Shown: positions 9,203 to 51,742 of the stretch, in pieces | Position numbering within the stretch: the first letter of the stretch is position 1 | Layout of the letters: each line of letters starts with the position of its first letter | Assembly (NCBI RefSeq): GCF_000226115.1 | Contig: NC_016458.1 | Span: 62,001 to 126,000, forward strand | Source of the DNA: Thermothielavioides terrestris NRRL 8126 | Lineage: Eukaryota > Ascomycota > Sordariomycetes > Sordariales > Chaetomiaceae | Direction of reading: 5' to 3' | Length of the DNA: 64,000 nucleotides | Notes under the pieces: generated by a model | The model's input: only the letters and a program-made list of their open reading frames with translations | What the model was told of the DNA's origin: nothing | Database searches by the model: none | Made by a program: the position numbers and the translations under genes

Positions 9203-9703
9203 TGAATTGGGGTGATGGACTACCTGGACATAGGGGACCCAGTTTTTCTATTTTTCTGTTTGTCTCAGAGCGTTGCATTCGTTGCTAGGGGAGGTCTGAC
9301 CCTCTAGTCATATATATTTAAGTGGGCTAAGCCCATCTTCTTCATTATAAAGCAAGACATTAAGCAGTTGTCAATACACGTTCGTTAATACTACGCTAGT
9401 AGTCCCTCTTCTTCTAGGAAGGCTATTAAGCCTCTCCTTCTATTGTTCTACCTCTGTCTAGACGATAGGCATTTGAGCTATTAAGCTTTGACCGCATTCT
9501 TGTTGTCCTTTCTTATATTTCCGCTATATCCTACTAGATATATCTAAGCTATATATCTTCCTCTTAGAAGATAGCCTTCCTATTACTCGATATACACTAT
9601 CTTCATCTATCTAGAGGGACACTATATTCCTTTAGAAGCTGTCTTATACACCTGGTTCTAGGTGTAATAGGGCAGGTTGGTATAGAGGTTTTACACCACT
9701 TCA
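9203..9703 (+). repeat. 5' LTR of C1
   Basis: 501 bp, pairs with 15580-16080. The first roughly 180 bp are nearly unmutated; the rest is RIP-mutated. A TATATATTTAAG box lies near 9310. Confidence 0.88.
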
Positions 9704-11430
9704 AATGGGGGCTCAATCGGGGAGGAGCTCAGCTCTATATCTAAACGAGATAGTACGGACTATAAAGTTTTCCGAGATCGTAGAACTATACAATGCTATA
9801 TTGATAGCTATATAACGACGATATAGCCAACCTATTGAGGCTCTACTACATTGATACTGGCATCTCTAGGAGGCGTAGAGGCCTATTGAGGCGTATATAT
9901 TCTAGGGGTCTATTGAGACCTTGTCCTAGGAGACCTTCCTTTGCCTAGACGGTATAGGGCATCGAAAAGATATCCCGTTATCCTTAATACTTCGAAGACC
10001 TATTAAGGCTTTGTTATTATCGACGTAGCGGTCGTAAAACGCTAACCTAATCGAAAGACGATAGTCTTATCCTCTTGAATAGAGATAAAGGTAGAATTTT
10101 TATCGATTGTCATTTTCTTCTCCAGTCTAGCTAAACTAGTTACGAAAGCGGTTAAGCATAGTAGCTACTTACGAGCTTCCAAGCTTAGGACTATACCTTT
10201 ACGATACTTAGCTCCTTTTAACAATATATCTAGCACTATTTTATATCGGATATAAGGTCTTAGTATAGACGTTTACTTTTCTTCTTAAGAGCTATACTCT
10301 TACCGCTATTATATTAGTTAGGTTTAGTATATTGGTTGCTAGAGATGTCTAGGTGATCTACAAAGAACCTATAGTTATCCTTCGAAGCCTTTAGACCGTA
10401 TATTCTAAAGGAACCTAGCTATTTAAAAGGTTTTCTTCCTCTAGATAGACATCGAAGGAGTCGATATTCCTATAGAAGTATATATATCAGTCTTTTTACA
10501 GTCTATCGATATAGTCGTTGCCTTTCTCAAAGACGATAGCTAAGCGCCTAATAACTAGACTCCAACGATATATATATATACTATCTATAGAAGCTCTAGG
10601 AATTCCATCGACCTCTACAATACTATTAATCCTAACGTCAACCTCCGAAAGAGAGTCCAAAGACATATCTATCTTATAGCCTTTCTAAGGTATACTAAGC
10701 GAAGAAGACCTAGCTAAAGTGGCGTAGACACCCCTTCCGTCTTCGCTAGATACCTCTACTCCGCCTATCTATATAGAGGTACCTACGGTAACACCTTCTA
10801 GTCAATCCAAAGTCGAAGTTCTAAAGAAGATAGCCAAGTACGTTCTTACTGCTATGCTTAGCGCAACCTTTCTAACCTTAGCGAAGGCCGGCCTTTAGGG
10901 CCACTTCTCTAGTCAGAATGCCACACGATAGATCAAGACCTTCAAAGAGATATACGAGGCTCATTAGGTCACTAATGACAAGACTTGTATATACCTGTTC
11001 GAACTTTAGTATAATACTACGATCTGGCCTATTATCCGTCACTAGGAGAAAAAGGACTAAGACATCTAGGCTACTTTTAAGGCCAAGTTCCTAAAGCGCT
11101 AGAAGGGCAATGATCCTAAGTAGTATAGTAACGGAGGTTACCTTCATAATCTAATCGAAGGGAGATACTAGCTAGTCGACAAGGTTATCTACAACCACTT
11201 CGAGTTGATTAACCGTATATACGCTATCGCCCTTACCAAAGTTCATAAGGAGCTATAGCATATAATCGTTCCAACGGTATAGTGTACGCTTGATTAGCGG
11301 ATCTAGGTGGCTTTTAAGGACTATTGGCATACCCTAAAGAAGGACGACAAGGACTCGCTCAACTACGAAGGGGGTAAAGAAGGAGCGACCTCGTTAGGAG
11401 CTTATCGTCGAAATCCTCTATAGAAAGCTA
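9704..11430 (+). pseudogene. C1 leader and gag remnant
   Basis: The roughly 900-bp leader after the LTR has no clear frame. From about 10600 a plus-strand frame becomes readable through RIP stops (segments such as KTFKEIYEAH and YNHFELINRIY around 10950-11220). The same region is found on the minus strand of C2 around 50090-50900, upstream of the C2 zinc knuckle and pol, so by position it is gag. Homology to C2 stops at about 11430, the deletion junction. Confidence 0.6.
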
Positions 11431-13600
11431 CCCGGTTTTTGACACTAGCCCTCTAGATATATAGGGACGTATATTCTAGAAGGGAAGGAAGGCGTAGAAG
11501 CTGCTACCTCCGATAGTTTCACCGGCGTTTAGCTATATTTCCTTCCTAATACCTATTGTTATATTGGCCTCCTACTCGCTAGTGATATCTCCGTTAGCTA
11601 CGTCTCACTCAGTCTTCGTCTATCTACTATCCTTCGCTCGTTTTTAGCCTTCGAGGCCTCATTCTTTTTCGCTAATACCCAAGTTTTCCTTCTAGGGGGT
11701 AACCCTACTCTTAGGAGCCTTATAGTCATTTATACCTTTTTCTTTTCACTTCTACCCTCTAGATAAATGGTTTCTATCGTGTAGGACTAAGTTTCTTAGA
11801 GCTAAAGCCAAGGCTAAGAAAAATCTACAATTAGGGTATATAGTCTTTTAATCTACTATCTATAGGCTAAGCTTCTAAACTATATCCCACCCCCTGCCTA
11901 TCCTTGTCCATTATCTCTGTCCCTCAACGACGTAAGCTCTTACGGTTGGCCTAGTATCGCGCTATTTGCTCCCTAATAGTATCCTCCAACGGGATAAACC
12001 ACTCTTGGCCTACCTTTTCTAGATATAGCTTTAGCCTAGGATCGTTCTTCGAATTATATAGAAGATAGCCCTATAAGATCAAGTCCTAAGCTAGGTACTT
12101 CTGATCGTTCCTATAGACGTAAGTCTAGGTATATTCCTTTTCTAACTAGATATAGTTAGTATACTTATTAGCAAAAAGAGAAGTAAGAGAAGCGTAGCTA
12201 TTGAAGGGCCAAATTATATAGACATTCCTATCTTCGCTAAAAGGAGTTCTCGAACGCTAGTACGAAAGTTTATAGCTTTAGCAAGGAACTTTATTGCTAT
12301 AAAAATGTTAGTCTTCCTCTACCTAGAGGGCGAGTATAAAAGGGAAGTGTAGCACTTACTTATAACCCTATACCTAGATTAAGAGAGCCGAAGCTCAGTT
12401 TAGGCGTATAGTAAGATAATATATCTAATGCCTAAGTAGTCCGCCATTGTAATACTCTATGAACACTAGACGAAGAACTAAGGTGTTATAGTACTATTCA
12501 ATTACATCAACTAGCCTATCGTCGATATAAACCGATCGCTATATCCTATACTGATCTTACTAATTGCTTAGTAGGACCTACTAGACGTATAGCAATCTAA
12601 CGTTTAGTCGAAAGATCTTAATTATACTGTAGATAGCCTTATATTCGACTAAGATCGTAGTATATTCGTTAGTATAACGCTTATCTTTTAGTATTGGCGG
12701 ATCCTTTATCTTGCTTTAGACTACCTAGACATACTTCTAGGCTACAAAGATCGTTGTTTTTAGCATTAGCGAAAGATCGATCTAACGGTTTATAATCCTA
12801 TATAACAGTAGCCTTTAGTCGTTTACTTTATTAATAATTTCCTATAATACGTTGTAGGTACACTAGCTATTTAGCATTATAGTTTCTAGGTTATAAATTC
12901 GTATATAGGAGCTATATATAAATTCGAAAGGGAAGTAGAAGACTTAACTACTAAGAACCCAATCTACCTAGAGAGACGAAGGCACTAGAATAAAGTAGTA
13001 AGAAGGTTAGAGGAAGAAAATACTTCTAGGATAGCAAAGAGGAGAGGAAGGCCTTAAGAAATCAAAGGGCGAATACTTATTTTTAGCTAATCAGTAGACG
13101 CTATAAGCCTTATCCGTTTTCTTTCGCCTAGTTTAGGAAAGAGCTAAGTAGCCCTCCTACCTTCGAAGGCTTATCTACCCCTTTTTCTTAATCCTCTTAC
13201 TAGCTCTCTTACAATTAACCATTTCTTTCGCCTTGCCTACTGCACCTTAGATTTTCTTGTAATCGCTTTAATCGGTCTAGATCTTTCTGCCTAGAGAGCG
13301 ACTTTTCTATCGAGCCAAATTTTTATATACTATCGTAAGCATTGCTATAGGTCGTCGTAGGATTCCCAATTTCGTAGGGCCTATACAACCTTAGGCTAAT
13401 ATAACTGCTGCCCTAAGATGGAAGTAGCCGCTTAGAGAGCTTAAGTTTTATATACCACTAGGTTCGTAGAGGCTTATAAGAGATAGCGATTAAGCGAAGT
13501 ATTACGCCTCCTTTATAGGGCAAAAGCTAGACTTAAAGATGCTAAGTTACCCTAGGGAGACTAGTCCTAAGCTTTTTCTATTTCTATAGACCCTAAAGAA
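11431..13600 (+). other. C-family region between pol and the Ulp1-like ORF
   Basis: Shared with C2 (there on the minus strand, 43930-42945 and 35386 to about 34100). Several frames on both strands can be read through RIP stops, so no coding assignment is made. It may be the N-terminal part of the Ulp1-like ORF. Confidence 0.4.
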
Positions 13601-15579
13601 GTATCTATAAGATATAATCAATTAGCAGCCTAACTAGATTTAGAGCCTTTAGCTTAGCGTAAACCCTAAGATTATAAGCTACCTATTCCTAGGCTAGCTA
13701 GAGGGAAGATATACAATAGATCGGTTTTTCGAAGTTAGTTTCGTAGATATAGGTGTTTCGCTTTTTGATATAGAAGGTATACTATTCGCTAAAGAATAGC
13801 TAAAGGGCCAAATGATCCTAGACGTTATATAGTTTTTCTTTCGTCCTTATAAGGACTATCTCTAGTTCTACCTATAGCCTATCTTAGATACTAGTCCTAC
13901 ACCAAAGGAGTTCCACCGATCTAGCTAAAAGGTTATTACTAACCATTGTCGCTTCTAGGTCTTCCTTTACTTCGTCGACGAAAGGCATTGGGCTATCACG
14001 ATCTTCGACTAAGTCGTAGGCTAGCTTTACTACTTCGACTCTATACTTAAGAGTATAGAGACGTATATCGATATCTTGTTAAAGGTCTAGATTGCTTTCT
14101 AGTCCGTCTATAGGTTCTCTTAGTTGTAGCTATATAAGGAGGTCATTATCCACTACCCTTAGTAAAGTTTAGAATAGGAGTATAGATAGTTCGCCTTTAA
14201 GTTTATATAAGCCTTTCTTCAAGAGCTCTAGCCCTACCTTCTAGACGGATAGACGTAGTTCAAGCTGCCCTAGCTTCGGCTATACTAGGGAGATAGCGAG
14301 ATAGTTGTATAGCAACGTATATTGCATTTATAGTTAGAAGCTTATAGGAATACTCTTAGTACTTTTAAGGATTGCCTACTCTATACCAAAGGAATCCCTT
14401 TGTTATAGTAGAACGAAGGGAAGATATACGAGCTCCCTTTGGACCTATTGTCTCCGACCTAAAAACCTATATAGCCTACGTTCTCGGAGTATAACGAAGA
14501 CGAGGTAATCAAAGTCCTCTAAGCCAACAATATATTCGTATCTAATGCCTCTAAATTTAATGACCTACCTATATATCTTTACAACTACTTTAGTAATATA
14601 GAACTTAGGATCCTAGCTATATACTTAGTAGCGTTTAAGGAAGCCTAGCTCCCTAGCCAAAGCAAGGAAGGAGTGATCGCCACTACCTAAATCATCCTTG
14701 TACCCTAGTCAAAGAAGGACATAGTATACTAGGTATACTATCGTAGGGTTGTAGGACTCCTACTGGACAAATAGTTTAGCGGCGTACTACCTTTACAAGA
14801 CCCTATAGACGACCTTAGACAATAGTTATAAAGTACGTTTCTAGTACCTAGCGCTATTCCGCCCTTTCGACTAGAGGACTAGCCAATTGCTTTAGGTCTA
14901 CTAGCGGCACTTATAGAGGATTTTAACAATATATCGACCTAGTGGGATATCGGAGCTAAGATTATAGAGATTGCTATACTACGAACAACTGTGATATAAA
15001 GGCTTGTCGATACCCCTATAGACAAGATAGACCGTAAGCGCCTTCTTAGCAATAACCTAGTTAAGAACCTTGGGGCACCAGTATAAATAGCCCTTAAGAA
15101 GATAGTACTTAATCCCTACCTCTAGAAAGAGGAGACGCTCGTCTATACGCTTATAAGGAGGCTAGACTACCTCGAGATACTTTATACTCTAGTATAGAAG
15201 TATCTTTAGGTATAAGGATCATCTACGTTATCTAGCCGAACGTCACCCTCAGTATAGTACTATAGTAAGCGCCCTCGTAAGAAGCTAGTGAAGCCTAGAC
15301 GTCTACTTCGCCTACCACTGTACAACCTATACGACTATGCCTTTGCCTATAAGTATAAGTATCTAGTATAGTAGCAAGGCTAAGATGTATATATCAAAGA
15401 GATAGAGGAGTACGAGAGATAGCGTAATCAACTACTATAGCTAGCCGAACCTTCGTAGGCTAAAAGAGCTATATATAGAGAGTAGCTTAAGGAGTAGCGA
15501 CGATAAGAGGTATATATTAAAGAGCTTTTAAGGTACGAGCTTGCCTATAAGAGCGTATAGCAAGCTCGAAAGGGAAGTG
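13600..15579 (+). pseudogene. Ulp1-like (C48) cysteine protease ORF of C1, RIP-inactivated
   Basis: Ulp1/SENP proteases cut SUMO precursors and SUMO conjugates. Here a plus-strand frame shows the family's order: a helical FFFRPYKDYL-like segment, then RHWAI with catalytic His (codon 13986-13988), then YYFDSI with catalytic Asp (14037-14039). Then comes E-Y-R-stop-F-A at 14178-14192, where codon 14181-14183 (TAT) sits at the catalytic Cys. TGTGGACAG with both TpG and the CpA mutated gives exactly the observed TATAGATAG, so the ancestral motif was CGQ. Spacings are H-17-D-48-C, against 17 and 49 in yeast Ulp1 (His514, Asp531, Cys580). A charged, Gln-rich, coiled-coil-like tail (about 15340-15560) follows to the LTR. 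C2 carries the same domain with the same spacing. Many stops: dead here. Confidence 0.82.
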
Positions 15580-16080
15580 TAAATTGGGGTAATGGACTAC
15601 CTAGATATAGGGGACCTAGTTTTTCTATTTTTCTATTTATCTTAGAGCGTTATATTCGTTGCTAGAGGAGGTCTAACCCTCTAGTCATATATATTTAAGT
15701 AGGCTAAGCCTATCTTCTTTATTATAAAGTAAGACATTAAGCAGTTGTCAATATACGTTCGTTAATACTATACTAGTAGTCCCTCTTCTTCTAGGAAGGC
15801 TATTGAGCCTCTCCTTCTATTGTTCTACCTTTGTCTAGACGATAGGCATTTGAGCTATTGAGCTTTGACCGCATTCTTGTTGTCCTTTCTTATATTTCCG
15901 CTATATCCCACTAGACGTATCTGAGCCACGTGTCTTCCTCTTGGAAGACAGCCTTCCCACCACTCGATACGCACTATCTTCATCCGTCTAGAGGGACACT
16001 GCATTCCTTTAGAAGCTGTCTTGCACGCCTGGTTCTAGGTGTGGTGGGGCAGGTTAGTGTAGAGGTTTTATACCACTTCA
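15580..16080 (+). repeat. 3' LTR of C1
   Basis: 501 bp. The first half is RIP-mutated, whereas about 15895-16045 keeps many CA/TG dinucleotides, mirror-image to the 5' LTR. Confidence 0.88.
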
Positions 16081-16084
16081 ATAG

Positions 16085-31073: not shown

Positions 31074-31707
31074 ATAGATTTAGAAGCCTTCTATAAAAGT
31101 ATATAAGAATATAGCTCTAAATATAGCTTTAGAGTATATATATATTTTCTTTATTAGGTTGTTAGAAATATAGGAGAATCTAGGGCTAAGGTTCTAGACT
31201 AATTACCTAGATCCTACTTTCTAGGAATACTACGATAGTAATAAGACGCTCTTCCCTATATCTTAAGAGAGTATTGAGACACTCTTCCTAAAGTTGTTTT
31301 AGACCCTATATACAGTGTTTATTGCCGCTACTAGCTAGATGCTAACGACACATTATAATACTGAGCTCTCCCCTCTTTTAAAGAGTTAAAGAGACTTAGA
31401 GAACTACCTATATAGGAAGGAGTTTAAAGTAGCTATATATAAAGAGATCTATAATCTTATAAGTAAAGGAACGTAGTAAAAGATTAAGCGAGAGTATATA
31501 AAAACGAGGCCTCTACCTCTAAAATAGGTATTCAACTATAAGTTCAACAAAGATAGCAACCTTAAGAAGTATAAAGTATATATCTATATATAAGGCGATC
31601 TATAAAATACTACTAATATCGTAAACATATATATAGCTACCTTCGCTATATGCTCTTTTTATATCGTTATAGTGCTTATAATACACTTTGACCTTAAGGT
31701 AAAGTAG
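31074..31707 (+). pseudogene. Element A reverse transcriptase, 5' half (Copia)
   Basis: Plus strand. The Copia RT start is recognisable: FKVAIYKEIYNL (about 31425-31460), then LPLKQVFNYKFN with the conserved Trp now TAG (about 31510-31550), LKKYKVYIYIQGDLQ (about 31560-31610) and HFDLKVKQ (about 31685-31707). It is cut there by C2; the frame resumes at 52234. Confidence 0.8.
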
Positions 31708-32194
31708 TGAAATAGTACAAAGCCTCTACACCAACCTACTCTACTACACCTAGGACCAGGCGCGCGAAATAGCTCCTAAGGGAATGCAGTGTCCCTCTAG
31801 ACGAATAAAGATAGTATATATCGAGTAGTAGGAAGGATATCTCCTAAAAGGAAGATATATAGCTCAGGTACATCTAGTAGGATATAGCGGAAAGACAAAA
31901 GACAGCAAAAATACAGTTAGAGCTCAACAGCTCAAATGCCTATCGTCTAGACAGAGGTAGAACAACGAAAGGAGAGGCTTAGTAGCCCTCCTAAAAGAAA
32001 GAGAACTACCAACGTAGCGTCAACGAACATATATTAATAACTACTTAATGTCTTATTTAATAACAAAGAAGATAGGCTTAGCCTGCTTAAATATATATAA
32101 TCAAAGGGCTAGTCCCCCTAGCAACGAATACAATGTATTAAAATAAATAGAAAAACTAGGTTCCTATATTTAGGTAGTCTATTACTCTAATTTA
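31708..32194 (-). repeat. 3' LTR of C2
   Basis: 487 bp. Its outer left end (ACAAAGCCTCTACACC) is preserved; its inner end is mutated (CTATTACTCTAATTTA). Confidence 0.88.
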
Positions 32195-34100
32195 CACTTT
32201 ACTTTTAAACTTGCTATACGCTCCTATAGATAAGCTTGCACTTTAAAAGCTCCCTAGTATACGCCTCTTATCGTCGCTACTCTTTAAACTACTCTCTATG
32301 TATAGCCCTTTCGACTTGCAAAGGCCTAGCTAGCTATAGTAGTTGATTATACCGTCTATTATACTCCTCTACTTCCTTAATATATATGTCCTATCTTTAC
32401 TACTATACTAGATATTTATACTTATAGGCGAAGGCATAGTCGTATAGGTCGTACAATAGTAGACGAAGTAGCTACTTAGACTTAGTAAGCTCCTTATAAG
32501 AGCGTTTACTATAGTACTATACTAAAAGTAATATATAGCCAAATAACGTAAATGAACCCTAAACCTACAAATGCTTCTATATTAGCGAGTAAGGCATCTT
32601 AAGGTAGTTTAGCCTCCTTATAAGCGTATAGACAAGCGTTTCCTCCTCCTAGAGGTAGAGATCGAGTACTATTATCTAGAGTACCGCCTATACTAGAGCC
32701 CTAAGCTTTTTAACCTATATATTACTAAGGAGGTGCTTCTAGTCGAACTTGTCTATAGGGGCATCGACGAGTCTTTAGGTCGTAGTCGCCTATATCATAG
32801 CGATCTCTATAATCTTAGCCTCAACGTTCGCCTAGGTCAATATATTATTAAGATCCTTCGTTAACGTAGCCGATAGTCCTAAAGTAGCATTCTAGTCCTT
32901 TGGCTAGAGCAGTAGAATAGCTCTAGATACTAAAAACGTAGTCTACAACTGTTGTCTAAGGTCGGCTATAGGGTTTTATAAAGATAGCCCGCTACTTAGC
33001 TATCTGTCTAGTAGAAGCCCTACGATCCTATAGTAGTATACCTAGTACATTACCTCTTACTTTGATTAGAGTATAAGAATTAGCTATATAATAGCGATTA
33101 GTCCCTTCTCGCTCTAGTTAAAGATCTAGGCTTACTTGAATACCACTAAGTATATAGCTAAGATCCTAAGTTCTATATCGCTAAAGTAGTTGTAGATATA
33201 TATAGGTAGGTCGTTGAGCCTAAGAATATCTAGCTCATTGGATATAAATACGTCGTCGCCCTAGAGGACTTTGATCACCTTGTCTTCGTTGTACTCTAAG
33301 AGTATAGGCTATATAGGTTCTTAGATTAGAGACAATAAATCTAAAGGAAGCTTATATATCTTACCTTCGCTCTACTATAGCGAAGGGATTCTTTTAGTAT
33401 AGAGTAGGCAATCTTTAAAAGTGCTAAGAGCATTCCTATAAGCTCCTAACTACAAATATAATATATATTGCTATACAACCTTCTTACTATCTCCTTAATA
33501 TAGTCGGAGCTAGGGCATCTTAAATTATATTAATCTATCTAGAAGGTAGGGCCAAAGCTCTTAAAGAAAAGCCTATATAAACTCTAGGGCAAACTATCTA
33601 TACTCCTAACCTATACCTTGCTAGGGACAGTGGACGATTATCTCCTCGTATAGCTATAACTAAAGGAACCTATAGATAGACTAGAAGACGATCTAGACCT
33701 CTAATAAGATATTAATATATATCTCTATACTTTTAAGTATAGAGTCGAAGTAGTAAAGCTAACCTATAACTTAGTCGAAGATTGTAATAGCCTAATACCT
33801 TCTATCGACGAAGTAAAGGAAGACCTAGAAACGACAATAGTTAGCAATAACCTTCTAGTTAAACTAATGGAACTCCTTTAGTATAGGACTAGTATCTAAG
33901 ATAGGCTATAGGTAGAACTAGAGACAGTCTTTATAAAGACGAAAGAAAAACTATATAACGTCTAAGATTATTTAGCCCTCTAGCTATTCCTTAGTAAGTA
34001 GTATACCTTCTATATCGAAGAGTGAAATACCTATATCTATAAAACTAATCTTAAAAAACTGATCTATCGTATACCTTCCCTCTAGCTAGCCTAGGAATAA
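32195..34100 (-). pseudogene. Ulp1-like (C48) protease ORF of C2, RIP-inactivated
   Basis: Same domain as in C1, minus strand. The catalytic His-Trp pair is now TAT TAG (33797-33792). The catalytic Asp is kept (GAC, 33746-33744, in YYFDSI), and the Cys position is TAT (33602-33600). H-D and D-C distances equal those in C1 (17 and 48 residues). Downstream reads YRNALSTFKDCLLYTK-like sequence, also shared with C1, then a charged tail towards the LTR. Because the two copies have independent mutation sets, the shared frame is not an artefact of one degraded copy. Confidence 0.8.
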
Positions 34101-35386
34101 ATAGCTTACAATCTTAGGGTTCGCGCTAAGCTAAAGGCTCTAAATCTAGTTAGGTCGCTAGTTGATTATATCTTATAGGTACTTCTTTAGGATCTATAAA
34201 AACAGAAAAAGCTTAGGACTAGTCTCCCTAAAGTAACTTAGTATCTTTGAGTCTAGCTCTTGCCCTATAAGGGAAGTATAATACTTTGCTTAATCGCTAT
34301 CTCTAGTAAGCCTCTACGAACCTAGTGGCATATAAAACTTAAGCTCTCTAAGTAGCTACTTCTATCCTAGGATAGCGGTTATATTGGCCTAAGATTATAT
34401 AGGCCCTACAAAATTAGGAATCCTATAACGACCTATAGTAATGTTCGTAATAGTATATAAAAATTTAGTTCAATAGAAAAGTCGCTCTCTAGGCAAAAAG
34501 ATCTAGACCAATTGAAGCGATTATAAGAAAATCCAAGGTATAGTAGGCGAGGCGAAAAAAATAGTTAATTGTAAGAGAGCTAGTAAGAGGATTAAAAAAA
34601 GGGGTAGACAAGCCTTTAAAGGCAAGAGGGCTACTTAGCTCTTTCCTAATCTAGGCGAAAGAAAATAGATAAAGCCTATAGTACCTACTAATTAGCTAGA
34701 GATAAGCTAGAAAAGAGCGTTCACCTCTTAAATTCTTAAGGCTTTCCTCTCCTCCTTACTATCTTAGAACTATTTCCTTCCTTTAACCTTTTTACCACTT
34801 TATTCTAATGCCCTCGTCTCTCTAGGTAGATTAGGTTCTTAGTAGTTAGGTCTTCTACTTCCCTTTCGAATTTATATATAGCTCCTATATACGAATTTAC
34901 AACCTAAAAACTAAGATATTAAATAACTAATATACCTACAACGTCTTATAGAAAATTACTAATAAAGTAGACGACTAAAGGCCCTTGTTATATAGGATTA
35001 TAAACTGCTAGATCGATCTTTCGCTAATATTAAAGATGAACATTTTTATAGCCTAGAAGTATATCTAGGTAGTTTAGAGTAAAATAAAGGATCTACCAAT
35101 GTCGAAAGATAAGCGCTATACTAACGAGTATACTACGATCTTAGTTGAATACAAAGCTATCTACAATATAATTAAGATCTTCCAACTAAACGTTAGACTA
35201 CTATATATCTAGTAGGTCTTACTAAGCAACTAGCAAGATTAGTATAAGATATAGCAATCGGTTTATATTAATAATAGGCTAGTTGACGTAATTGAACAGC
35301 ACTATAACACCTTAGTCCTTCGTCTAATATATATAGAGTACTATAATAGTAGACCACTTAGATATTAGATATACTATCTCGCTATA
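34100..35386 (-). other. C2 region between pol and Ulp1-like ORF (left part)
   Basis: Homologous to C1 around 12200-13500. Both strands can be read through TAG/TAA stops, so strand and product stay open. D1 is inserted at its right end (35387). Confidence 0.4.
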
Positions 35387-35646
35387 TGTTATAGACCGGG
35401 CTATACCCGGGCTAGGTATATAGGGCTACGCCTAGGATCTATAGCGGTCCTATAACGGGCCTGCCATAGGCCCGAGGCGGACCCGCCTCGTGCCTAGAAT
35501 AACATTGGCCCAAGCCCCCTATACACAAGCCCCTGAAAACTCTATATACAAAAACCGTAGCCTATACTTCTCCTTTTCTCTCTTTAAAGTAGTTGAATAG
35601 AACATCGTACGCTTATCTATAGACGCTATAAGGCTAGTACGTTACA
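35387..35646 (+). repeat. 5' LTR of D1
   Basis: 260 bp, TGTTATAGACC to ACGTTACA. Contains AAGTAGTTGAAT (about 35588-35599), complementary to the sequence just after the LTR. Confidence 0.9.
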
Positions 35647-35658
35647 GTTCAACTACCT
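35647..35658 (+). promoter_or_regulatory. Self-complementary primer-binding site of D1
   Basis: GTTCAACTACCT directly abuts the LTR. Its reverse complement AGGTAGTTGAAC matches AGGTAGTTGAAT in the right LTR of D1 (about 42885-42900) except for one C-to-T change. This is the layout of Tf1/sushi-type elements that self-prime with the 5' end of their own RNA. Confidence 0.6.
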
Positions 35659-35689
35659 TCTAGGCAAATAGAGTAGTTGTTGCTTCTAA

Positions 35690-36960
35690 ACGTAGACGAG
35701 AGTAGTACATTGGGCGTTTCAACGCTAGTACCAAGTAGACTAGACGCTACTATAAACAACCTAGGCATTCTACAAGTTCTAGACCTAGACTAGGTCTATA
35801 AACACTTCTAAGTCTTATAGGAAACGATCGTATAGTAGAACGTAACTATCGAGGAACTCTATATAGCCTAGATCGCTATAGCTTAGACTATAAACGCCTC
35901 TGCGGTAGTCTACGCCCTAGCTCCGACGATTAACGCCGTAGCTCTAGTAGCTCCTAAGACGCAACGGAAGCGCCTCCCTATAGGACAACCCTTCGATGGT
36001 AAGAAGGAACTCTTTGCTGCCTAGAAGGCTATAATAGTATATATCCTAGTAGCGGATTAGGACTTTATTAGAGGCCTCTATAACCAATAGGTATTTATTT
36101 AAAGGAACCTTAGCTAGGGAGTTTAGGCTAAGGTCGTAGCCTTCTATAAATTAGGAGGGCCTTACTATAATTATAACCTAGGAGCGTTCTTTAAGTACTT
36201 TGTAACCGTTTATATAGACCCTTATAAGTAGGTTATAGCTTTAATAGAGCTAGATATATTCCGCTAAGGAGACAACGAGCTATTCTTCTCCTTCTTTATT
36301 TGCTTTAAGGCGAAGCTATCGAAGGCTAAAGGACTTAATTAGAACAACGAAGTATAACTTATTAGACTATAACGATACTTCTCTCTAAAGTTGAAGTATA
36401 TTGTAGTAGGATAGGGGGTTCTATAGAACGACTATACTATAGTCGTTGTAAAGTACTATAAGATTACTATCGACTTAGAGGCCCTCTACCTAGAGGAACA
36501 ACATTAGTAGTCCTAGGGTAAACGACCTAGGCCTAATATAGATATAGAGAAGGATATAGATAGAGATATATCAATGACTAGGATCAACGTAGCCTATACT
36601 GCCTTTGCCTAGGGGGGAGCTAATAAGGGCTATAGAAGAAAGTAGTAGTAGAATAGAGGAAAGCAAGGTATAAATATACTATAAGCAAAGTAAATAAACG
36701 ACAAAGTATATATAGTATATCAATAGGCCGGAGCTTATATCCGTTGTAGGCGCTAGGGTCACTTTATAGCCGCCTATCCCTTCGCCTTAGCTAAGAGGCT
36801 AGCTCCTTAGGTCGATATCAATAAGCTAGAGGCCAAGGAATAGATGGAGGAGGACTCCTCTTCTAAAGAGGAGGAGGGAAAAGAGTAGCCCCTATACAAA
36901 GTTTTATATAGAGGTCGAAAGGACCTAGCTATTTATAGAACGAGTTTATAAAGATTAGAG
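35690..36960 (+). pseudogene. D1 gag remnant
   Basis: Plus-strand Gypsy gag; the retrotransposon-gag-like core lies around 36000-36490. The zinc knuckle is at about 36728-36785 (AYIRCRRQGHFIAAYP: CX2CX4HX4C with the outer two Cys now Tyr by TGT-to-TAT). An acidic tail (EEDSSSKEEE-like) follows. Stops are at Gln/Trp codons. Confidence 0.72.
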
Positions 36961-37099
36961 AGAGAATAGATAAACTACCTTTTCTAATCTTTGTTTTCCT
37001 AAACTCCTTTAGTTTTATAAATATATAAGTAGATAGTAGGTATTAGAGCTATAGAGCTATTAGCGAAAAAGTATATTAGTAGTTAGGGATTAAGTAAAT

Positions 37100-40000
37100 A
37101 AGCTTACTAACTCCCTATACCTTAGGCGTTGTAGTTAAGGGGGTATAAATTATAAAGAAAATTATATATATCGCCTAGGTCGTAATAGATATCGATAGGT
37201 AGATCAATACTACTATATTCTATATAGTCCTAGGACTAGCCTACAATATTATTCTAAGGCTCCTCTAGATAAGCTACTATAGAATTGTACTAGACCTAGC
37301 TAATAGGGTCTTTACTATCAATTCGTAAAGCGGCCTACAAGTATATAAATGCTCTTTATAATAGAAAGAAACTAATACTACTCTAATTATAAGTACGATG
37401 TTTATAGGCTTAGCCTATAGGGTATAAAAGAAGAAGTCTAAAGGAGCCTAAGACACGTTCCTCGTCACTAGTATCTACGAGATAACTACTATACTAGGGG
37501 CGGCCATCTCCTAGCCTAATACCGACCTAAACCTAAAGATCGCTTTGCCAAAGGAGCTATAAGACTTTGCTAACCTCTTCGACAAGGAAAAGGCGAACGG
37601 TCTACCCCCCTATCGAGGGAAGGCCAACTATTATATCTGTCTTAAGACAGGCCTAGACGAGAAACCTCCTAAGCTCCTATAGAGACCCTTATACAATATA
37701 CTAAGGGACTACCTCCTAGAGATTCAAAAGTAGGTTATAGACCTAATAGACAAAGGATAGATCTAAGTAAGCTCCTTATCGATAGTCGCCCTAATCTTCT
37801 TTATAAAGAAGCTAAGAAGGGGATAGAGGTTCTATATAGATTACTAGGCTCTAAACAAGATTATTAAATAGGACTAGTACCTACTCCCTTTGATTAAGGA
37901 GACTCTCTAATCCTTAGCTAGGGCTAAATAGCTTATAAAGCTAGACGTTAGAGCTACCTTCTATTGTATCTAGATAGCTAAGGGGGATAAGTACTTTATA
38001 GCGTTTTATATAAAGTTTAAGCTATTTGAATAGCTAGTCTACCCCTTTAGGCTTATAGATACTTTTACAATGTTCTAAAGATATATTAATAACGCTCTTA
38101 GCCTAACGTTAAAGGACTATATAACGGTATACCTTAACAATGTCTTAGTATACTTAAATAGGAGCTAGAAGGACTATATAAGGAAGGTATATAAGGTCCT
38201 CTAGAGGCTAAGGGATATAGGCCTTAACCTAGACCTTAAAAAGTATATATTTATAATAAAGGAAGTTAAATACCTAGGGTATATTATAGAGGTAGGAGTC
38301 TATATCCACTTTGACCCTAAGAAGATTAAGGCTATCTATAAATAGGAGGTACCCTATAGAGTCTAAGGAGTATAGAGCTTCTTTAGATTCACTAACTTCT
38401 ATTATAACTTTATCCCTAACTTCTCTAAGAAGGCGGCCTCATTGATATATCTTATCTATAAAAATGTCCTATTCCACTAGGGCAAAGAGGAATAGGAGGC
38501 CTTCGATATATTTAAGGCTACGTTTATATCGAAGCTGATCCTTGCCCAATAGGATCCTAAGAGAAAGACGATCGTAGAAGCGGACTATTCTAATATAGCA
38601 TTTAGCAGGTACTTATCTTAGTAGGGAGAGGACGAGGTCCTTTACCCTATAGCCTACTACTCTATAAAACTAAGCTCTACTAAATATAACTATACTATCT
38701 ATAACAAAGAACTATTGGCTATTATCTTATACTTTAAAGCCTAGTCGGCGGAGCTTCGAAGCGTAGTAGCCCCCTTTACTATCCTAACCAACTATAAGAA
38801 TCTTAAATACTTCACTTAGCTACGTTCGATCAGCGAATAATAGGCTAGATAGGTAGAGACACTCTCCTTGTTCAACTTTAAACTAAAGTACTAGCTAGGA
38901 TCCTAGGCCTTATACCCTAATACGCTCTCCTAGTATAAGCAAGACGAGCCTAAAGACAATTAGTATATCGCCTAGCTACTTCCCCTAATTAAGGTATGCT
39001 AGACTAGTGTATAAAAGGAGGCTAGGCTACCTATAGGAAAAACGCTTTTCGAAGATAAGTAGCTCGCTGCCCTATAGAACAAGGGTATTACTAGAGACGA
39101 GCACTATACTCACCAGCTCTAAGCTATCTACAACGAAGCTTAGAAGTTTCCTAAGGAGGCGAATATAGTATAGACCTAGATCATAGACTATTCCCTTAAT
39201 ATATAAGGTGTACTCTAGTTCTATAGCTATCTCTAGCTCCCTATATAGGAGCCCCTAACTACTACGATTATCTAGTAGATTTATAACTTAGCTATATCGA
39301 GATACCTAGGGTATAATAGGCTATTTAAAATGCTCTAGAGAGATTATTACTAGGACTTTATATCGTCCAATATAAAGCAGTTTATTAGGAACTATAATTA
39401 GTGCCGCTAGAGTAAGATCTCCCAATAACTATATTAAAGGCTCCTATAGCCCTTGCCTATCTCCGATCGCTTCTAGAAACAGATCTCTATTAACTTTATA
39501 ACCGACCTCCCTATAAAAGACGAGGGAGCGTCTAGCTACCTTATAGTAATTACCAACTATCTCTCTAAATATATATAGCTCAAGGCAATATATTTAATAA
39601 AAGTAGAAGAGTATACCCTTCGATTCTATAATATATAGTAGCGTTTCTATAGGTTCCTAACTTAAATTATAACCGACTATAAGTCGGACTAGCTAAGTAG
39701 GTTCTAGACTACATTGTATAAAGCAATAGAGATAGAGCAACTCCTATCGACTTCTCACTATCCCTAGATAGATAGAGGGACAAAGTAAGTTAACTAAAAG
39801 GTATAGGCAATCCTCTAGATCTTCGTCTCCTTTATATAGTACAACTAGCCTAAATATCTCCTAGCTTACTAGTTTATATTTAACAATAGGGACTCGTCTA
39901 TAACTAGAGTAAGCCTAAACTACCTTCTCTATAGGTTCAATATAAGCCCTATATAGTTTATTACAATTCTAATAGTGCCTATAATATCCTTAGAAGGTTA

Positions 40001-40560
40001 TACCGCTAAGTTCCTCCGTTATCTAAAGAAGGGGATAGAGTAGACCTAAGCAACTATTATATATACGTAGTAGCGGTAGTAAACGAATATAAACCGCTCT
40101 CGTCACCTAGCTAAGAGGTTCTAGGTAGAGGACGAAGTATAACTCTCTCTATATAATATAAAGACGAACTACCCTAGTAAGAAGCTTGACTAGCTAAATG
40201 CTAAGTATAAGGTAGTCGTAGTACTAACTTTGTTAACGATAACGCTCAATATACTAAACGGTCTATACCCGACCTTCTATATTAATTTAGTTAAGCGAAC
40301 GGCTTCTAACCTACTCCCTTTGTAGAAAATTACAAATAAGAGACTAGACCCTATATAGGTTATATCGAAGGAGGGTATTCCCTAATAGGAATATAGGGTA
40401 GAGGCAATCTTTAAAGCTTAGAATGTAAAAGGGAGAGAGAACAACTACGATATATATATTAAGTGGGTAGGTTACGATAAACCAATGTAGGAGCCTTTAA
40501 AGAACTTCCTAGAGACTACTATATTCGACGAGTTTAAATAGGAGTAGGGAGATATATAAT
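37100..40560 (+). pseudogene. D1 pol remnant (PR-RT-RH-IN-chromodomain)
   Basis: Protease near 37195-37330. RT about 37545-38330 with RFYIDYQALN (about 37831) and the active-site segment VYLNNVLVY (about 38128-38155; the usual two Asp are Asn). RNase H about 38560-38760 (EADYSN, YNKELLAI). Integrase zinc-binding segment with RNYN-CR about 39390-39410, core about 39470-39780 (ISINFITDLP, ITDYKSDQ). The C-terminal chromodomain is at about 40395-40530 with the IKWVGY core. Gene order and chromodomain place it in the Tf1/sushi/MAGGY-like chromoviruses. Confidence 0.8.
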
Positions 40561-40765
40561 ACAATGATAGGCTAATATCGAACTGGAAGAGAAAGAGGAA
40601 ACGTTATATTTGTATATAGACTACCCTATAAAAACTAGCTACTTAGATAAATACAACTATATAGATATAAGAAAACTATAATACGCCTAAGTCTAGTCAT
40701 CCTCTTAAACCTAAATAGAATAGAACTATATATAAAAAAACAATAGGATATACTAACGATGTCAC

Positions 40766-41869
40766 TTATTTAAGATCTATAACAGGACCTACGTTGGCAA
40801 TCTCTTCCTTATCTTCGAACAAGTATATAGGCAGAGTAGGCGCGTAAGAGGGTAGAACAACGACGTAAGGGGTCTAAGGCAAGGGCTATATATATACTTG
40901 ACGAGTATATAGTACATCCTCTACTAGGGAGGAAGGGCATCGACTATAGTATAGGTTATAGGCGGGGGAACGTATATAAAGAGAGTAGCAAGGGCGGGAC
41001 CCCTAAGGGGTATAGACGAGCGAGGGGGTAGTAAACGCAATAATATAGTCTACGAAGTATAAATTCGTCTCTAAGACAGTTGCCTAAGACTACGCTATAG
41101 TGTAAATAGCCTCTACGATATACCGATTTTCTCGCTAGGAGAAATTGAGATATTACGCTATATATTTAACTAGATAGCTATAATACTATATAGCGAGGTT
41201 GTCCTAAGGAGCCTAGTATAGAACTAGGGCTCTTCGCTAGCCTAGGGTCGAAGGAGATGAAGAGAAGGCTAAAAGTACATTAGGTACAAAGGCAAAGTAC
41301 ATTAAAGACCAATACTATAGGGCTATACTAATTGTATTATAGAAGCTATATATAAAAGTACTAAATTATAGTGTTAAGATAGTACAATAGGCTAGCTTAG
41401 TCTTAGTCTTCTTCTAGGCGAGCTTAGTAATAGCTTAGTTGTCAATATAAAACTTAATTAAACGTTTTAGACTAGTATATAGAGAGACGTTCATCGCCTA
41501 GAGTACTAGATTCTAATAGTATTTAGTATAGGCTTTAATATATTCTAAATAGCTTTCTCCCTAGCCCTAAACACAATCTACTAAGTTACTATAAAGAAGC
41601 TACTCGATATAATTGAGGTAGACATCTCCCTCCTCCTTTAGAAAGGCGTTATCTTTATCGTTAGAATCTCCCTCTATAATATAGCTACTAATAGTGTAAT
41701 AAAAGGAGTTGTTACAATTATTACAGTTCTATCTAGGACGTTGTTAGCTTCTAGTCTAGGGCTAGAACGGGCCTAATATAGGGTAATATACATTGTAATC
41801 TTGGTTATCGTCCTCTCTAGGACAACGTCCTTCGCTACTATCTCCGAAAGAAGCGACTACTACCGATAT
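40766..41869 (-). pseudogene. D1 antisense ORF (aORF), RIP-inactivated
   Basis: A 368-codon frame opposite to gag-pol, matching D2 59289-60395. The start codon is now ATA. Its end is VGPVIDLK-stop where D2 has IGPIIELE-stop, and segments such as VEDVLYTRQ and FEDKEE/FKDKEE are kept. Internal stops are TAG/TAA at Gln/Trp positions. Function unknown; no membrane segment, integrase or gag signature seen. Confidence 0.65.
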
Positions 41870-42684
41870 TATAGTAGATAAGTCTTAGGAATATATTGGA
41901 ATTATAAAGGAAATAGAAAGCTACTATAGAGAGCAAAGCGAATAGATAGAATATATATAAGCTATATATATAGAGGAGGCGGCTAAAGGATTGAGCGAGT
42001 ACGAAGAGGAAGGATTATAGGACAAGTTAGGCGCGAAATAGAAACGTAGTAGATACAATTAGTAAAGTGGTTAAATGTATAATGACGATAACAAGGCTAA
42101 TATAACAGAAGTATAGACGCTAGACGACTATATAGTTTATATAAGAAGAGGCTAACAATATATAAGGTAAACGTTTAACGGAGTAAATAGAAGGTAAAAA
42201 AAAATACAAAGGGTAGAAGATATATATAGAATAGAAGTATAATAAACGAGGAATATATACGAAGTAGAATAAAGAGAGAAATATCGATATATAAGTAGAA
42301 GGAAGACAAAGTTATAGGAGTAGGGAGAAGGTATATACTAGAAATAAGAAGAGAACGCAAAGAGCAAGTTCGTATAAAGGGAGGGGTTTTATTAGCAATA
42401 GGTAGGGGGTCTATCGTACCTAATTAGCGGATACGCCTCGTACAATACGGCTACTACAAAGGAGAGCGTAAGGCAAGGAAGGGGCTAATCAGCGTCCTAT
42501 AAGAGCGAGGTAAATAAATAACCTACGGCTAGGTAGTAGGATTATAGGCAATAGCTTTAAGCCACCTAAATACCGGGTTAGACACTGGCGTTCGCTATAA
42601 TCAACCCTACGCTACGCTAGATCCGTGCCTAGCGCTATACTACGTATACCCTAAACTAGCTCCCTATCCGAGAAGGGGGGGGTA
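41870..42684. other. D1 region between aORF start and 3' LTR
   Basis: No convincing gene. Minus-strand open stretches here (such as 42360-42175) are hydrophobic low-complexity products of the A/G-rich strand. It could hold the promoter of the antisense ORF. Confidence 0.35.
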
Positions 42685-42944
42685 TATTATAGACTGGGCT
42701 ATACCTAGGCTAGGTATATAGGGCTACGCCTAGGATCTATAGCGGTCCTATGACGGGCCTACTACAGGCCTAAGGCGGACCCGCCTTACGCTTGGAATAA
42801 TATCGGCCCGAGCCCCCTATATACGAGCCTCTAAAAACTCTACGCGCGAGAACTATAGCCTATACTTCTCCTTTTCTCTCCTTAAGGTAGTTGAATAGAA
42901 CATCGTACGCTTATCTGTAGACGCTATAAGGCTAGCACGTTACA
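42685..42944 (+). repeat. 3' LTR of D1
   Basis: 260 bp; inner end mutated (TATTATAGACTGGG), outer end preserved (AGCACGTTACA). Confidence 0.9.
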
Positions 42945-43930
42945 CTATACGCCTAAACTGAGCTTCGGCTCTCTTAATCTAGATATAGGGTCGTAAGTAA
43001 GTACTACACTTCCCTTTTATACTCGCCCTCTAGGCAAAGGAAGGCTAATACTCCTATAGCAACAAAGTCCCTTACTAAAGCTATAAACTATTATACCGAC
43101 GTTTAACAACTCCTTTTAACGAAGACGAAGATATCTACGTAACTTAGCCCTTTAATAACTACGCTTCTCTTACTCCTCTCTTTACTAACAAATATAGTAA
43201 CTATATCTAATCGAAGAAGGAATATACCTAGACTTACATCTATAGGAATAATTAAAAGTACCTAGCTTAGGACTTGATCTTATAGGGCTATCTCCTATAC
43301 GATCTAAGGAATGATCCTAGGTTGAAGCTATACTTAGAAGAAGTAGGCTAAAAGTAGTTTATCTCACTAAAGGATATTATCAAGGAGTAGATAATACGAT
43401 ACTAGGTCAACTATAAAAGCTTATACCACTAAGGGACAGAGACAATAGACAAGGATAGGTAGGGGGTAGGACATAGTCTAGAAGCTTAGCCTATAGATAG
43501 TAAATTAAGAGACTATATACTCTAATTATAGATTTTTCTTAGCCTTGACTTTAGTTCTAAGAAACTTAGTCTTATACAATAGAAACTATCTATCTAGAGG
43601 ACAAAAATAAAAAGAAAAAGGTATAAATGACTATAAGAATCCTAAGAGTAGGGTTACCCCTTAGGAAGAAAACTTAGATACTAGCAAAAAAGAATAAGGT
43701 CTTAAAGGCTAAAAACAAGCGAAGGACAGTAGATAGACGAAGACTAAGTGAGATATAGCTAATAGAGATATTATTAGCGAGTAGGAGGCTAATATAACAA
43801 TAGATATTAGGAAGGAAATATAGCTAAACGCCGATAAAACTATTAGAGACAACAACTTCTACGCCCTCCCCCCTTTCTAGAACATATATCCCTATATATC
43901 TAGAGGGCCAATGTTAAAAACTAGGTAGTT
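42945..43930 (-). other. C2 region between pol and Ulp1-like ORF (right part)
   Basis: Homologous, inverted, to C1 11460 to about 12400. Carries no clear frame. Its right edge (about 43930) is where C1 loses homology. Confidence 0.4.
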
Positions 43931-49560: not shown

Positions 49561-51742
49561 TATAGCTTTTATAGCTTCTATATACTTAAGGACTATATAG
49601 TTAGAGTTACTACAATAGTAGCAATAGCTAGAGTTTATAGGTCTACTATAGCTAGGAGGACGACTATCAATATATAGGCTAGTGACGAAGCTAATGTATC
49701 TCTCCTATAAATGGCTCTACTATTGGAAATACGTCTAAAGAACCTTAATCTTGTTAAGAGTAGGATCGATTCTATATAAACGGAGGGCCTCGATCTTCCG
49801 TTTAAACTATTTAGCGATCTTCTACTTCTAGATACGTAGACGCTAGAGCTAATTAGCTAGATCGTCGATATCATTAGACGTAGGTATAAGAGCTTTCTTT
49901 AGCTCCTCCTCTTCCTAGTTCTACGGCTTAGGAGTCGTCTTAATAGTAGGCGTAGCCAAAGGCGAGTAGTACTTCTATAGATCAATCTTACGCTTATAGG
50001 TCTTAAGAAAGAGGTCTTCTATATTAAGACCCTTCTAAAGAGTATCTTAAACGAACTTAAGGAAGTCTACCTACTTTGTAATATAGATAGAATCCTTATC
50101 GTCCTTCTTTAAAGTACATTAACAGTCTTTAAAAGCTACCTAGATCTACTAATCGAGTATATACTATATAGTTAGAACGATTATATACTATAGCTCCTTA
50201 TGAACTTTAGTAGAGGCAATAGCGTATATATAGTCGATCAACTCGAAGTAGTTGTAGATAATCTTGCTAATTAGCTAGTATCTCCCTTCGATCAGATTAT
50301 AAAGGTAACCTCTATCACTATACTATTTAGGATTATCGCCCTTCTAGCACTTTAGGAACTTAGCCTTGAAAGTAGCCTAGGTCTTCTAATCCTTTTTCTC
50401 CTAGTAATAGATAATAGGCTAAATTGTAGTATTGTACTAAAGCTTAAACAAATATATATAGGTCTTGTCATTAATAACATAATAAGCCTTATATATCTCT
50501 TTAAAGGTCTTAATCTATTATATAGCATTCTAACTAGAGAAGCGGCCCTAAAGGCTAGCCTTCGCCGAGGTCGGAAAGGTCGCGCTAAGCGTAGTAATAA
50601 GAATATATTTAGTTATCTTCTTTAAAGCTTCGGCTTTAGAGAGACTAGAAGGTATTACTATAGATACCTCTATATAGATAGGCGAAGTAGAGGTATCTAG
50701 CGAAGACGAAAGGGGTATCTATACCGCTTTAGCTAGGTCTTCTTCGCTTAATATACCTTATAAAGGCTATAAGACAGATATATCTTTAGACTCTCCCTTG
50801 GAGGTTGGTATTAGGATTAATAATATTATAGAGGTCGACGAGATTCCTAGAGCTTCTATAGACAATGTATATATATATCGCTAGAGCCTAGTTATTAAGT
50901 ACTTAGCTATCGTCTTTAAGAAAGGCAACGACTATATCGATAGACTATAAAAAGATTGATATATACACTTCTATAAGAATATCGACTCCTTCGACGTCTA
51001 TCTAAAGGAAGAAAACCTTTTAAAAAGCTAGGTTCTTTTAGAATATATAGTCTAAAGGCCCTAAAGGATAACTATAGGTTCCTTATAGATTACCTAGATA
51101 CCCCTAGCAACCAATATATTAAACCTAACTAATGTAATAGCAGTGAGAGTATAGCTCTTAAGAAGAAAAGTAAACGTCTATACTAAGACCTTGTATCTAA
51201 TATAAAACAGTGCTAAATACACTATTAGAAGGAACTAAGTATTGTAAAGGTATAGCCCTAAGCTTAGAAGCTTGTAAATAGCTACTATACTTAACTACTT
51301 CTATAACTAGTTCAGCTAGACTAGAGAAGAAAATGACGATCGATAAAAATTCTACCCCTGTCTCTACTTAGGAGGATAGAACTGTCGTCTTTCAATTAGA
51401 TTAACGTTTTACAACTACTATATCGATAATAACGAAGCTTCAATAGGTCTTCGAAGTATTAGGGATAACGAGATATCTTTTCGATGCTCTACGCTATCTA
51501 GGCAAAGGAAGGTCTCCTAGGACAAGGTCTTAATAGACCCCTAGAACGTATACGCCTTAATAGGTTTCTACACCTCCTAGAAATGCCGATATCGGTATAT
51601 TAGAGCCTTAATAAGTTAGCTATATCGTTGTCGTATAGCTATTAATATAGTATTATATAGTTCTACGATCTTAGAAGACTTTATAGTCTATATTATCCTA
51701 TTTAGATATAGAGTTGAGCTCCTCTTCGATTGAGCCTCTATT
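49560..51742 (-). pseudogene. C2 gag remnant and leader
   Basis: Zinc knuckle near 49635-49590 (CYYCSNSNYIVLKY: CX2CX4HX4C with His and last Cys now Tyr). Upstream (50090-50900) matches the C1 gag. The leader up to the LTR (about 51000-51742) matches C1 9704-10600. Confidence 0.65.

What the first reader, a model, noticed from the sequence alone, without database searches (positions are those of the whole stretch)
13600..15579. LTR retrotransposon family C carries a Ulp1-type SUMO protease ORF
Seen: in both C copies, downstream of the gag/pol position, a frame has HW, FDS and a (C)GQF motif. Spacing is H-17-D-48-C (C1 codons 13986, 14037, 14181; C2 codons 33795, 33744, 33600). Known: yeast Ulp1 uses His514, Asp531, Cys580 (17 and 49). 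Two TpG and one CpA changes explain the loss of Cys-Gly-Gln exactly. Ulp1-like domains are best known in plant Mutator-like and CACTA DNA transposons. In a Gypsy-order LTR element this is, as far as I know, unusual. Inference: the element may have removed SUMO from host silencing factors or from its own Gag/integrase.
Basis: partly seen in the sequence, partly recalled or inferred. Interest (0 to 1): 0.88.

Follow-up and report, generated by a model that had tools for sequence, protein, structure and literature searches.

The report
Retrotransposon with SUMO-protease-like gene
A large family of dead jumping genes in a fungal genome carried, besides its copying machinery, a gene that looks like a cysteine protease of the kind that removes SUMO tags, an extra described so far in cut-and-paste transposons.

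Summary
The motif is real. H13986, D14037 and codon 14181 lie in one frame at H-17-D-48-C; over 31 copies the codons are CAT 20, GAC 26, TGT 2 (otherwise TAT/TAC), and a Gln six codons before the Cys is CAA in 24. A Ulp1/SENP profile mutated forward by a RIP model scores 48.7 bits on C1 and 43.3 on C2; 700 other window blocks reach at most 20.6. Most of that score comes from nine motif columns; the rest is weak. Pfam, AlphaFold and protein searches did not see the domain. The family is about 13.1 kb (26 of 40 scored 5' ends). C2 keeps RT-RNase H-integrase in Ty3/Gypsy order, 43% identical to an intact relative, then a spacer, the C48-like ORF and the 3' LTR. So: a Ty3/Gypsy family with a Ulp1-like accessory ORF, inactivated by RIP. 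Seven library searches with Ulp1 or C48 terms listed no earlier report of this pairing. A deSUMOylating role is inference.

The parts
9203..16080 (+). Element copy C1: LTR retrotransposon with internal deletion (6.9 kb instead of about 13.1 kb)
   Evidence: LTR pair 503 bp, 90%; TG...CA ends with ATAG at 9199-9202 and 16081-16084 (read); no RT found
9203..9703 (+). 5' LTR of C1 (BLAST: 9202-9704)
9706..9722 (+). Primer-binding site TGGGGGCTCAATCGGGG, complementary to the 3' end plus CCA of a host tRNA
   Evidence: ARAGORN in bacterial mode calls the tRNA Arg-TCT and ends it one base later; I read it as intron-containing tRNA-Pro with the full 17-nt match
11350..11356 (+). Deletion joint in C1: 7-bp overlap of stretches that lie about 6.1 kb apart in C2
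   Evidence: another full-length copy matches C1 only from 11352 on
13009..13185 (+). Spacer before the C48-like ORF: the indels seen here (five kinds, in single or a few copies) are not multiples of three
13190..15577 (+). C48-like ORF (frame start p mod 3 = 0), roughly 720-800 codons, riddled with stops; limits approximate
13959..14228 (+). C48-like core aligned to profile positions 64-150 of 153
13986..13991 (+). Catalytic His followed by Trp (HW)
   Evidence: CAT 20/31; TGG 12/31
14037..14042 (+). Catalytic Asp followed by Ser (DS)
   Evidence: GAC 26/31
14163..14165 (+). Gln six codons before the Cys position (oxyanion position in Ulp1, recalled)
   Evidence: CAA 24/31; same offset in chains printed
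14181..14183 (+). Catalytic Cys position (TAT in C1)
   Evidence: TGT 2/31, TAT 28, TAC 1
15568..15577 (+). Polypurine tract GAAAGGGAAG next to the 3' LTR
15578..16080 (+). 3' LTR of C1 (BLAST: 15579-16081)
31700..52276 (-). Element copy C2: full-length family member, interrupted by nested element D at 35386-42944; ends approximate
33555..33824 (-). C48-like core in C2
   Evidence: 43.3 bits; coordinates carried over from C1 by the ungapped match
44006..50090 (-). Stretch present in C2 and absent from C1
44412..47888 (-). pol of C2 (RT, RNase H, integrase) in one frame, 43% identical to intact relative P0001 residues 2-1135

Best explanation
Family C is a Ty3/Gypsy-order LTR retrotransposon of about 13.1 kb: 5' LTR, tRNA primer site, 5' coding region (gag presumed), pol with RT, RNase H and integrase, a short spacer, a separate ORF of roughly 720-800 codons whose N-terminal part is a CE-clan cysteine protease domain of the C48 (Ulp1/SENP) type, polypurine tract, 3' LTR. 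Shown: the LTRs, primer site, polypurine tract, pol order, the ORF's place and the triad codons across copies. Inferred: the element made a deSUMOylating (or related) protease as an accessory protein, most likely to change SUMO on host factors that hold the element silent, or on its own Gag/integrase. The copies examined were then inactivated by RIP; C1 is also a deletion copy that could have moved only with enzymes supplied by another element.
For: Triad, HW and the Gln at -6 in the right spacing in real copies. Forward-RIPed C48 profile: 30 copies 32-49 bits, each ending at the same codon; other frames (12 copies shown) and reverse strand (6 copies) 9-17; 700 blocks away from the ORFs at most 20.6; 500 permuted profiles at most 24.6; 500 codon shuffles at most 23.3; four host ULP genes after a RIP simulation at the same rate score 23-80 with profiles built without them. 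A profile without host proteins still gives 36.3 on C1 against a maximum of 22.2 in 200 permutations. Pol: 75 relatives, best E 8e-136; below-cut-off Pfam matches in C2 to RT_RNaseH_2 (1.8e-5), RT_RNaseH (3e-5), RVT_1 (0.015) and in another copy to Integrase_H2C2 (0.008); one of 18 rve matches (0.002, below cut-off) lies inside a full-length copy on the same strand. The ORF is held by 67 scored copies, down to 66% identity to C1 with RIP included; indels from 13310 to 15360 are 3n but one; transversion-variable columns 39/25/50 at codon positions 1/2/3 (hand sum of six windows). Mechanism: lowering SUMO conjugation raises Ty1 RNA in yeast (PMC8585004, passages).
Against: Pfam found no C48 in C1 or 28 other copies (for three of them); the PDB profile search found none; AlphaFold gave pLDDT 31.7; hhalign gave 14% and 5% probability; no homologue of the ORF was found. 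With the nine motif columns masked, C1 is reached by 2 of 500 permutations but C2 by 28 and L066 by 54. A host-only profile gives 26.3 on C1 against a null maximum of 24.5. Gly and Gln after the Cys are never seen. No gag domain or retropepsin was identified. In the yeast study loss of Ulp1 function also raised Ty1, so a deSUMOylase need not help an element. Nothing here tests SUMO specificity or activity.
Confidence: 0.62

Rival explanations
1. The ORF's cysteine protease belongs to another CE-clan branch (adenain/Polinton-like) and acts as a maturation protease on the element's own polyproteins instead of a retropepsin.
For: The order H-D-Q-C fits both branches (recalled). None of the 24 closest pol relatives (P0001-P0024) lists a retropepsin accession, while several more distant hits do (accession meanings recalled). 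No protease domain turned up in the read-through of C2 44000-50092 or of C1.
Against: The profile that scores was built only from Ulp/SENP proteins, and C1 scores like real ULPs do. A retropepsin could sit in the gag ORF, which was not resolved. No adenain-type profile was tested.
Confidence: 0.15
2. The motif is a coincidence in AT-rich RIPed sequence, in an ORF of other function.
Against: Calibrated against the same AT-rich window, C1 and C2 stand far outside.
Confidence: 0.13
3. A host ULP gene was picked up once and is a passenger without function.
For: Among nine single references the highest score on C1 is for the host C48-like ORF in L006 (25.3; 150 permutations at most 20.9). 6 of 40 scored 5' ends have no C48 copy in my list within 20 kb.
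Against: The L006 score is hardly above other window blocks (23.4), and BLASTP of L006 against copies gives E 0.38 at best. The ORF is in 67 scored copies, with mostly 3n indels and a mild third-position excess; 26 of 40 scored 5' ends keep it at the full-length spacing.
Confidence: 0.1

Closest known systems
Ty3/Gypsy LTR retrotransposons (group of P0001-P0024)
   Same: LTRs, tRNA primer site, polypurine tract, RT-RNase H-integrase order; 48% identical to P0001 over the searched RT-RNase H stretch, 43% over pol
   Different: Extra C48-like ORF after integrase; none of the 75 pol hits lists PF02902 in the pol protein, and their neighbouring ORFs could not be read
Ginger1 DNA transposons
   Same: Gypsy-like integrase together with a Ulp1 domain (PMC2836005, passages)
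   Different: DNA transposons with inverted repeats and the domain fused to the transposase; here a separate ORF in an LTR element with RT
Plant MULEs with Kaonashi/KIU genes and C48-bearing CACTA elements
   Same: Transposon-borne Ulp1/C48 domain (PMC13317346; PMC8978399; passages)
   Different: DNA transposons of plants
LTR retrotransposons with other accessory ORFs (bdelloid ORF3 types, orchid AlkB-like ORF)
   Same: Additional ORF with an enzyme domain (PMC5408684; PMC9289625; passages)
   Different: Other enzymes; a term search found no Ulp1, SUMO or cysteine protease in the bdelloid main text and no Ulp1 or SUMO in the orchid main text
Cellular Ulp1/SENP proteases
   Same: H-W, D-S, Q(-6), C in nearly the same spacing
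   Different: D-to-C 48 codons, 49 in yeast Ulp1; Glu (or RIPed Lys) where Ulp1 has Asp before the Cys; long C-terminal part

Membership tests
Ty3/Gypsy LTR retrotransposon | Paired LTRs with target-site duplication | tested here: met
   503-bp LTRs, 90%; ATAG on both sides
Ty3/Gypsy LTR retrotransposon | tRNA primer-binding site and polypurine tract | tested here: met
   Match to a host tRNA 3' end plus CCA; GAAAGGGAAG before the 3' LTR
Ty3/Gypsy LTR retrotransposon | RT, RNase H, integrase in that order | tested here: met
   In C2, by alignment to P0001 and below-cut-off Pfam matches, and in part in another full-length copy; not met in C1, a deletion copy
Ty3/Gypsy LTR retrotransposon | gag and aspartic protease | tested here: inconclusive
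   No Pfam hit in C1 frames or for these in C2 44000-50092
Peptidase C48 (Ulp1/SENP) | Catalytic His-Asp-Gln-Cys in order and spacing | tested here: met
   H, D and C together in 1 of 30 copies
Peptidase C48 (Ulp1/SENP) | Profile match over the domain | tested here: inconclusive
   Pfam, PDB and hhalign on RIPed rows negative or weak; forward-RIPed Ulp/SENP profile strongly positive over the catalytic half, N-terminal half weak (5-16 of 300 permutations reach it in five copies)
Peptidase C48 (Ulp1/SENP) | CE-clan fold | tested here: inconclusive
   AlphaFold mean pLDDT 31.7; no fold search was run on so poor a model
Peptidase C48 (Ulp1/SENP) | Cleaves SUMO or a SUMO-like protein | not testable with these tools
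   Needs an assay

The most novel reading that the evidence does not exclude
A clade of fungal Ty3/Gypsy elements depends on its own CE-clan cysteine protease, used against SUMO-dependent silencing or in place of a retropepsin, and some lineage-specific 'Ulp1' genes reported on accessory chromosomes and among unique genes of fungi are copies left by such elements.
Probability: 0.2. Interest if true: 0.82.

Novelty: new variant of a known kind. Interest (0 to 1): 0.62.

Why it matters
C48 domains have been described in several DNA transposons, where their use is still unknown (PMC13317346 says so for the plant case). An LTR element with such an ORF would be an independent case in an element that moves by another mechanism, pointing to SUMO as a shared pressure point between mobile elements and hosts. 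Yeast data already link SUMOylation to Ty1 control (PMC8585004), so the idea can be tested. It may also explain puzzling extra Ulp1 genes reported on fungal minichromosomes (PMC10779208, PMC8146201).

Tried and rejected
First reading that family C lacks pol altogether: dropped after LTR and 5'-end coordinates showed 13.1-kb copies and C2 gave an RT. Plain Pfam on read-through frames of C1 (nothing, or one irrelevant match at E 8), of three single copies (only irrelevant weak matches in one) and of four of the frames of elements B, D and E (nothing). In one search L002 was read out of frame. PDB profile search: none. Protein search with the ORF, single (7990 candidates) and as alignment (7995): none at E 0.001 and 0.01. 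AlphaFold: useless model, no fold search. hhalign: weak. An alignment of four whole host ULPs was misaligned and not used. Single-reference scoring to place the domain among ULPs: too weak for a tree. Viral contigs: no relative of P0001. In one search minus-strand loci were not turned round; its counts are replaced. One search stopped with an error and left the His column unmasked; its masking is replaced, its N-terminal test stands. Papers whose C48/Ulp1 terms were absent or irrelevant: PMC8127270, PMC7264820, PMC6431247, PMC5718144 (passages). The Rfam scan gave one tRNA at 3783-3861, unrelated.

Rows dropped: L065 (match starts later) from the 30-copy scoring; L037 is C1 itself; A1 has L054 but neither L065 nor C2; A3 leaves out L054 (same protein as L053 in this stretch) and L065; A2 holds 14 of the 31. 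One search aligned A1 and A3; searches used A1.
Full report
Observation. The window is C2:62001-126000 of a 36.9-Mb, 6-contig assembly. Between GC-rich ends it is AT-rich with strong RIP signatures. In C1 the frame starting at 13599 has the motif exactly as given. In C2 the HW reads Y-stop. The stretch 13599-15578 has 67 scored matches (127 candidates) in the genome, C1 and C2 among them, each with 36-56 TAG stops. In 31 aligned copies (C1, C2, 29 loci) the codons at the four catalytic positions are CAT 20 / TAT 11, GAC 26 / AAC 5, CAA 24 / TAA 7, TGT 2 / TAT 28 / TAC 1; the codon after His is TGG 12 / TAG 18 / TGA 1. RIP turns C to T and, on the other strand, G to A, so TGT cannot come from TAT this way: Cys is the older state. 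The Gly and Gln codons are AGA and TAG in 31 of 31 and stay inferred.

Is it a C48 domain? Ordinary searches fail: Pfam on C1 and on 28 other copies, the PDB profile, AlphaFold (pLDDT 31.7), and two homology searches of the protein collection. hhalign against a small C48 alignment matches only the HW-DS stretch (14% probability, E 0.0019 with X at stops; 5%, E 0.008 with Q; one comparison each). I therefore left the element as it is and mutated the reference: a profile of nine Ulp/SENP sequences (four host proteins, five from solved chains) was passed through a codon-level RIP model and run against the observed codons. Thirty copies score 32.4-48.7 bits and each ends at the same codon; frames +1 and +2 (12 copies shown each) 9.3-14.0; reverse strand (6 copies) 10.4-16.5. 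Away from the ORFs, 700 blocks have mean 13.1, SD 1.9, maximum 20.6; a Gumbel fit puts the expected number at 48.7 bits near 2e-8, a rough extrapolation. Permuted profiles reach 24.6 and shuffled codons 23.3 at most in 500 each. With RIP rates 0.4-0.9 five copies keep 41-49 bits; at rate 0 C1 has 28.9 but C2 only 14.5. A profile without host sequences gives 36.3 on C1 (null maximum 22.2), one of host sequences alone 26.3 (null maximum 24.5). Four host ULPs, each scored by a profile built without it, give 34-80 intact and 23-80 after simulated RIP. Against: with H, W, D, S, D, C, G and the two Q columns masked, C1 has 20.0 (2 of 500 permutations reach it), L042 20.0 (3), L044 17.6 (22), C2 17.4 (28), L066 16.2 (54); median of 30 copies 16.3, null means about 13.5-13.9. 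The N-terminal half alone is reached by 5-16 of 300 permutations in five copies. The case rests mainly on the motif columns, in the right order and spacing, plus the retained Cys and Gln codons.

What carries it? C1 has 503-bp LTRs, ATAG on both flanks, a primer site matching a host tRNA 3' end plus CCA, and a polypurine tract, but no RT was found: the best score with a forward-RIPed RT profile is 17.5, in the noise, while five places in the window score 64-233. Plain Pfam RVT_1 lists 150 scored loci of 488 candidates in the genome, many with several to 16 TAG stops, one of them in the window (C2:79747-80127); family C's own RT is not among them, so plain Pfam alone would not have settled this. 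The reason is a deletion. C2 matches C1 on both sides of a joint at 11350-11356 but has 6.1 kb between (44006-50090), and one of the five RT places (64 bits) lies there. Pfam gives RT_RNaseH_2 1.8e-5, RT_RNaseH 3e-5 and RVT_1 0.015 in one frame, all below the curated cut-offs, and in another full-length copy Integrase_H2C2 0.008, also below. One of 18 rve matches (C1:7479650-7479931, E 0.002, below cut-off) falls in a full-length copy on its strand. The protein collection returns 75 relatives of the RT-RNase H stretch; P0001-P0024 stand apart (E 8e-136 to 9e-62; the next hit is at 1e-16). Pol lies at 47888-44412 in a single frame, 43% identical to P0001 residues 2-1135; the other copy's part matches P0001 575-1135 at 48%.

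Family anatomy. Of 40 scored 5' ends (102 candidates), 26 lie 9.8-10.5 kb from a C48 copy on the same strand, as in 13.1-kb elements; 4 are short (C1 among them), 4 longer, 6 have none in the list within 20 kb. For seven of them both LTRs are among the 40 scored LTR hits (of 244 candidates), 13.10-13.14 kb end to end (hand check). Indels seen between 13009 and 13182 are not multiples of three; from 13310 to about 15360 they are (3, 396, 9), except one 1-nt insertion in one copy; after that irregular again. So the C48-like ORF is a separate frame after pol and a spacer. What lies between the end of pol and the spacer (about 2 kb) is unknown. Transversion-variable columns over 13600-15400 are 39, 25 and 50 at codon positions 1, 2 and 3 (hand sum), a mild sign of past protein-level constraint; in the core itself (13900-14500) they are 13, 7 and 10, not third-position biased.

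How it may work (inference). In yeast, lowering SUMO conjugation (Ubc9, Siz1 Siz2) or losing Ulp1 function at the nuclear pore raises Ty1 RNA; the authors ascribe this to decreased SUMOylation of host factors (PMC8585004, abstract and passages). An element that makes its own deSUMOylase could loosen its silencing; but since Ulp1 itself restrains Ty1 there, the direction is open. The alternative, a maturation protease, gains some weight because none of P0001-P0024 lists a retropepsin, but the gag end was not resolved.

Known or new. Ulp1/C48 domains are described in Ginger1 DNA transposons (PMC2836005, passages), plant MULEs (PMC13317346, passages) and CACTA elements (PMC8978399, passages). Accessory ORFs of other kinds are known in LTR elements (PMC5408684, PMC9289625, passages). 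Seven searches of the open-access library with Ulp1 or C48 terms and one on additional ORFs listed no C48 or Ulp1 ORF in an LTR retrotransposon; one search showed 20 of 124 papers. Two more searches served the host and SUMO background. Subscription papers, preprints and Repbase entries were not covered.

Noticed in passing
window 4268-4455 and 62282-62469: A 188-bp direct repeat (90%) sits at both borders of the AT-rich block, as if one outer element's ends enclosed the nested ones.
   Followed up: no
C1:2629902, C2:5104320, C3:579261, C5:3244116, C5:4280872 of the assembly: Five places with the same RVT_1 and rve scores in a stop-free 1324-codon frame: apparently young Gypsy copies untouched by RIP in a genome where most other listed RT loci carry stops.
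   Followed up: no
L002 and L003: A host C48 gene with the same match and score on two contigs: a duplication that seems to have escaped RIP, or an assembly effect.
   Followed up: no
L006 910-3066: Host C48-like ORF with a long low-complexity tail; as a single reference it scores highest on C1, but hardly above other window blocks, and BLASTP is not significant.
   Followed up: partly
window 35386-42944: Nested element D interrupts C2 with a 6-bp overlap at the C1-equivalent 12407-12412; RT signals also lie in B, D and E and at 17.4-18.4 kb minus.
   Followed up: partly
C2:7442196-7447157 and C4:3833441-3839779 of the assembly: LTR pairs of family C about 5.0 and 6.3 kb apart with a 5' end but no C48 copy in the list: other kinds of deletion copies.
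   Followed up: no
literature: Extra Ulp1 genes on Colletotrichum and Parastagonospora accessory chromosomes and among unique Fusarium zanthoxyli genes (PMC10779208, PMC8146201, PMC11110190, passages) might be transposon-borne; no sequence was compared.
   Followed up: no
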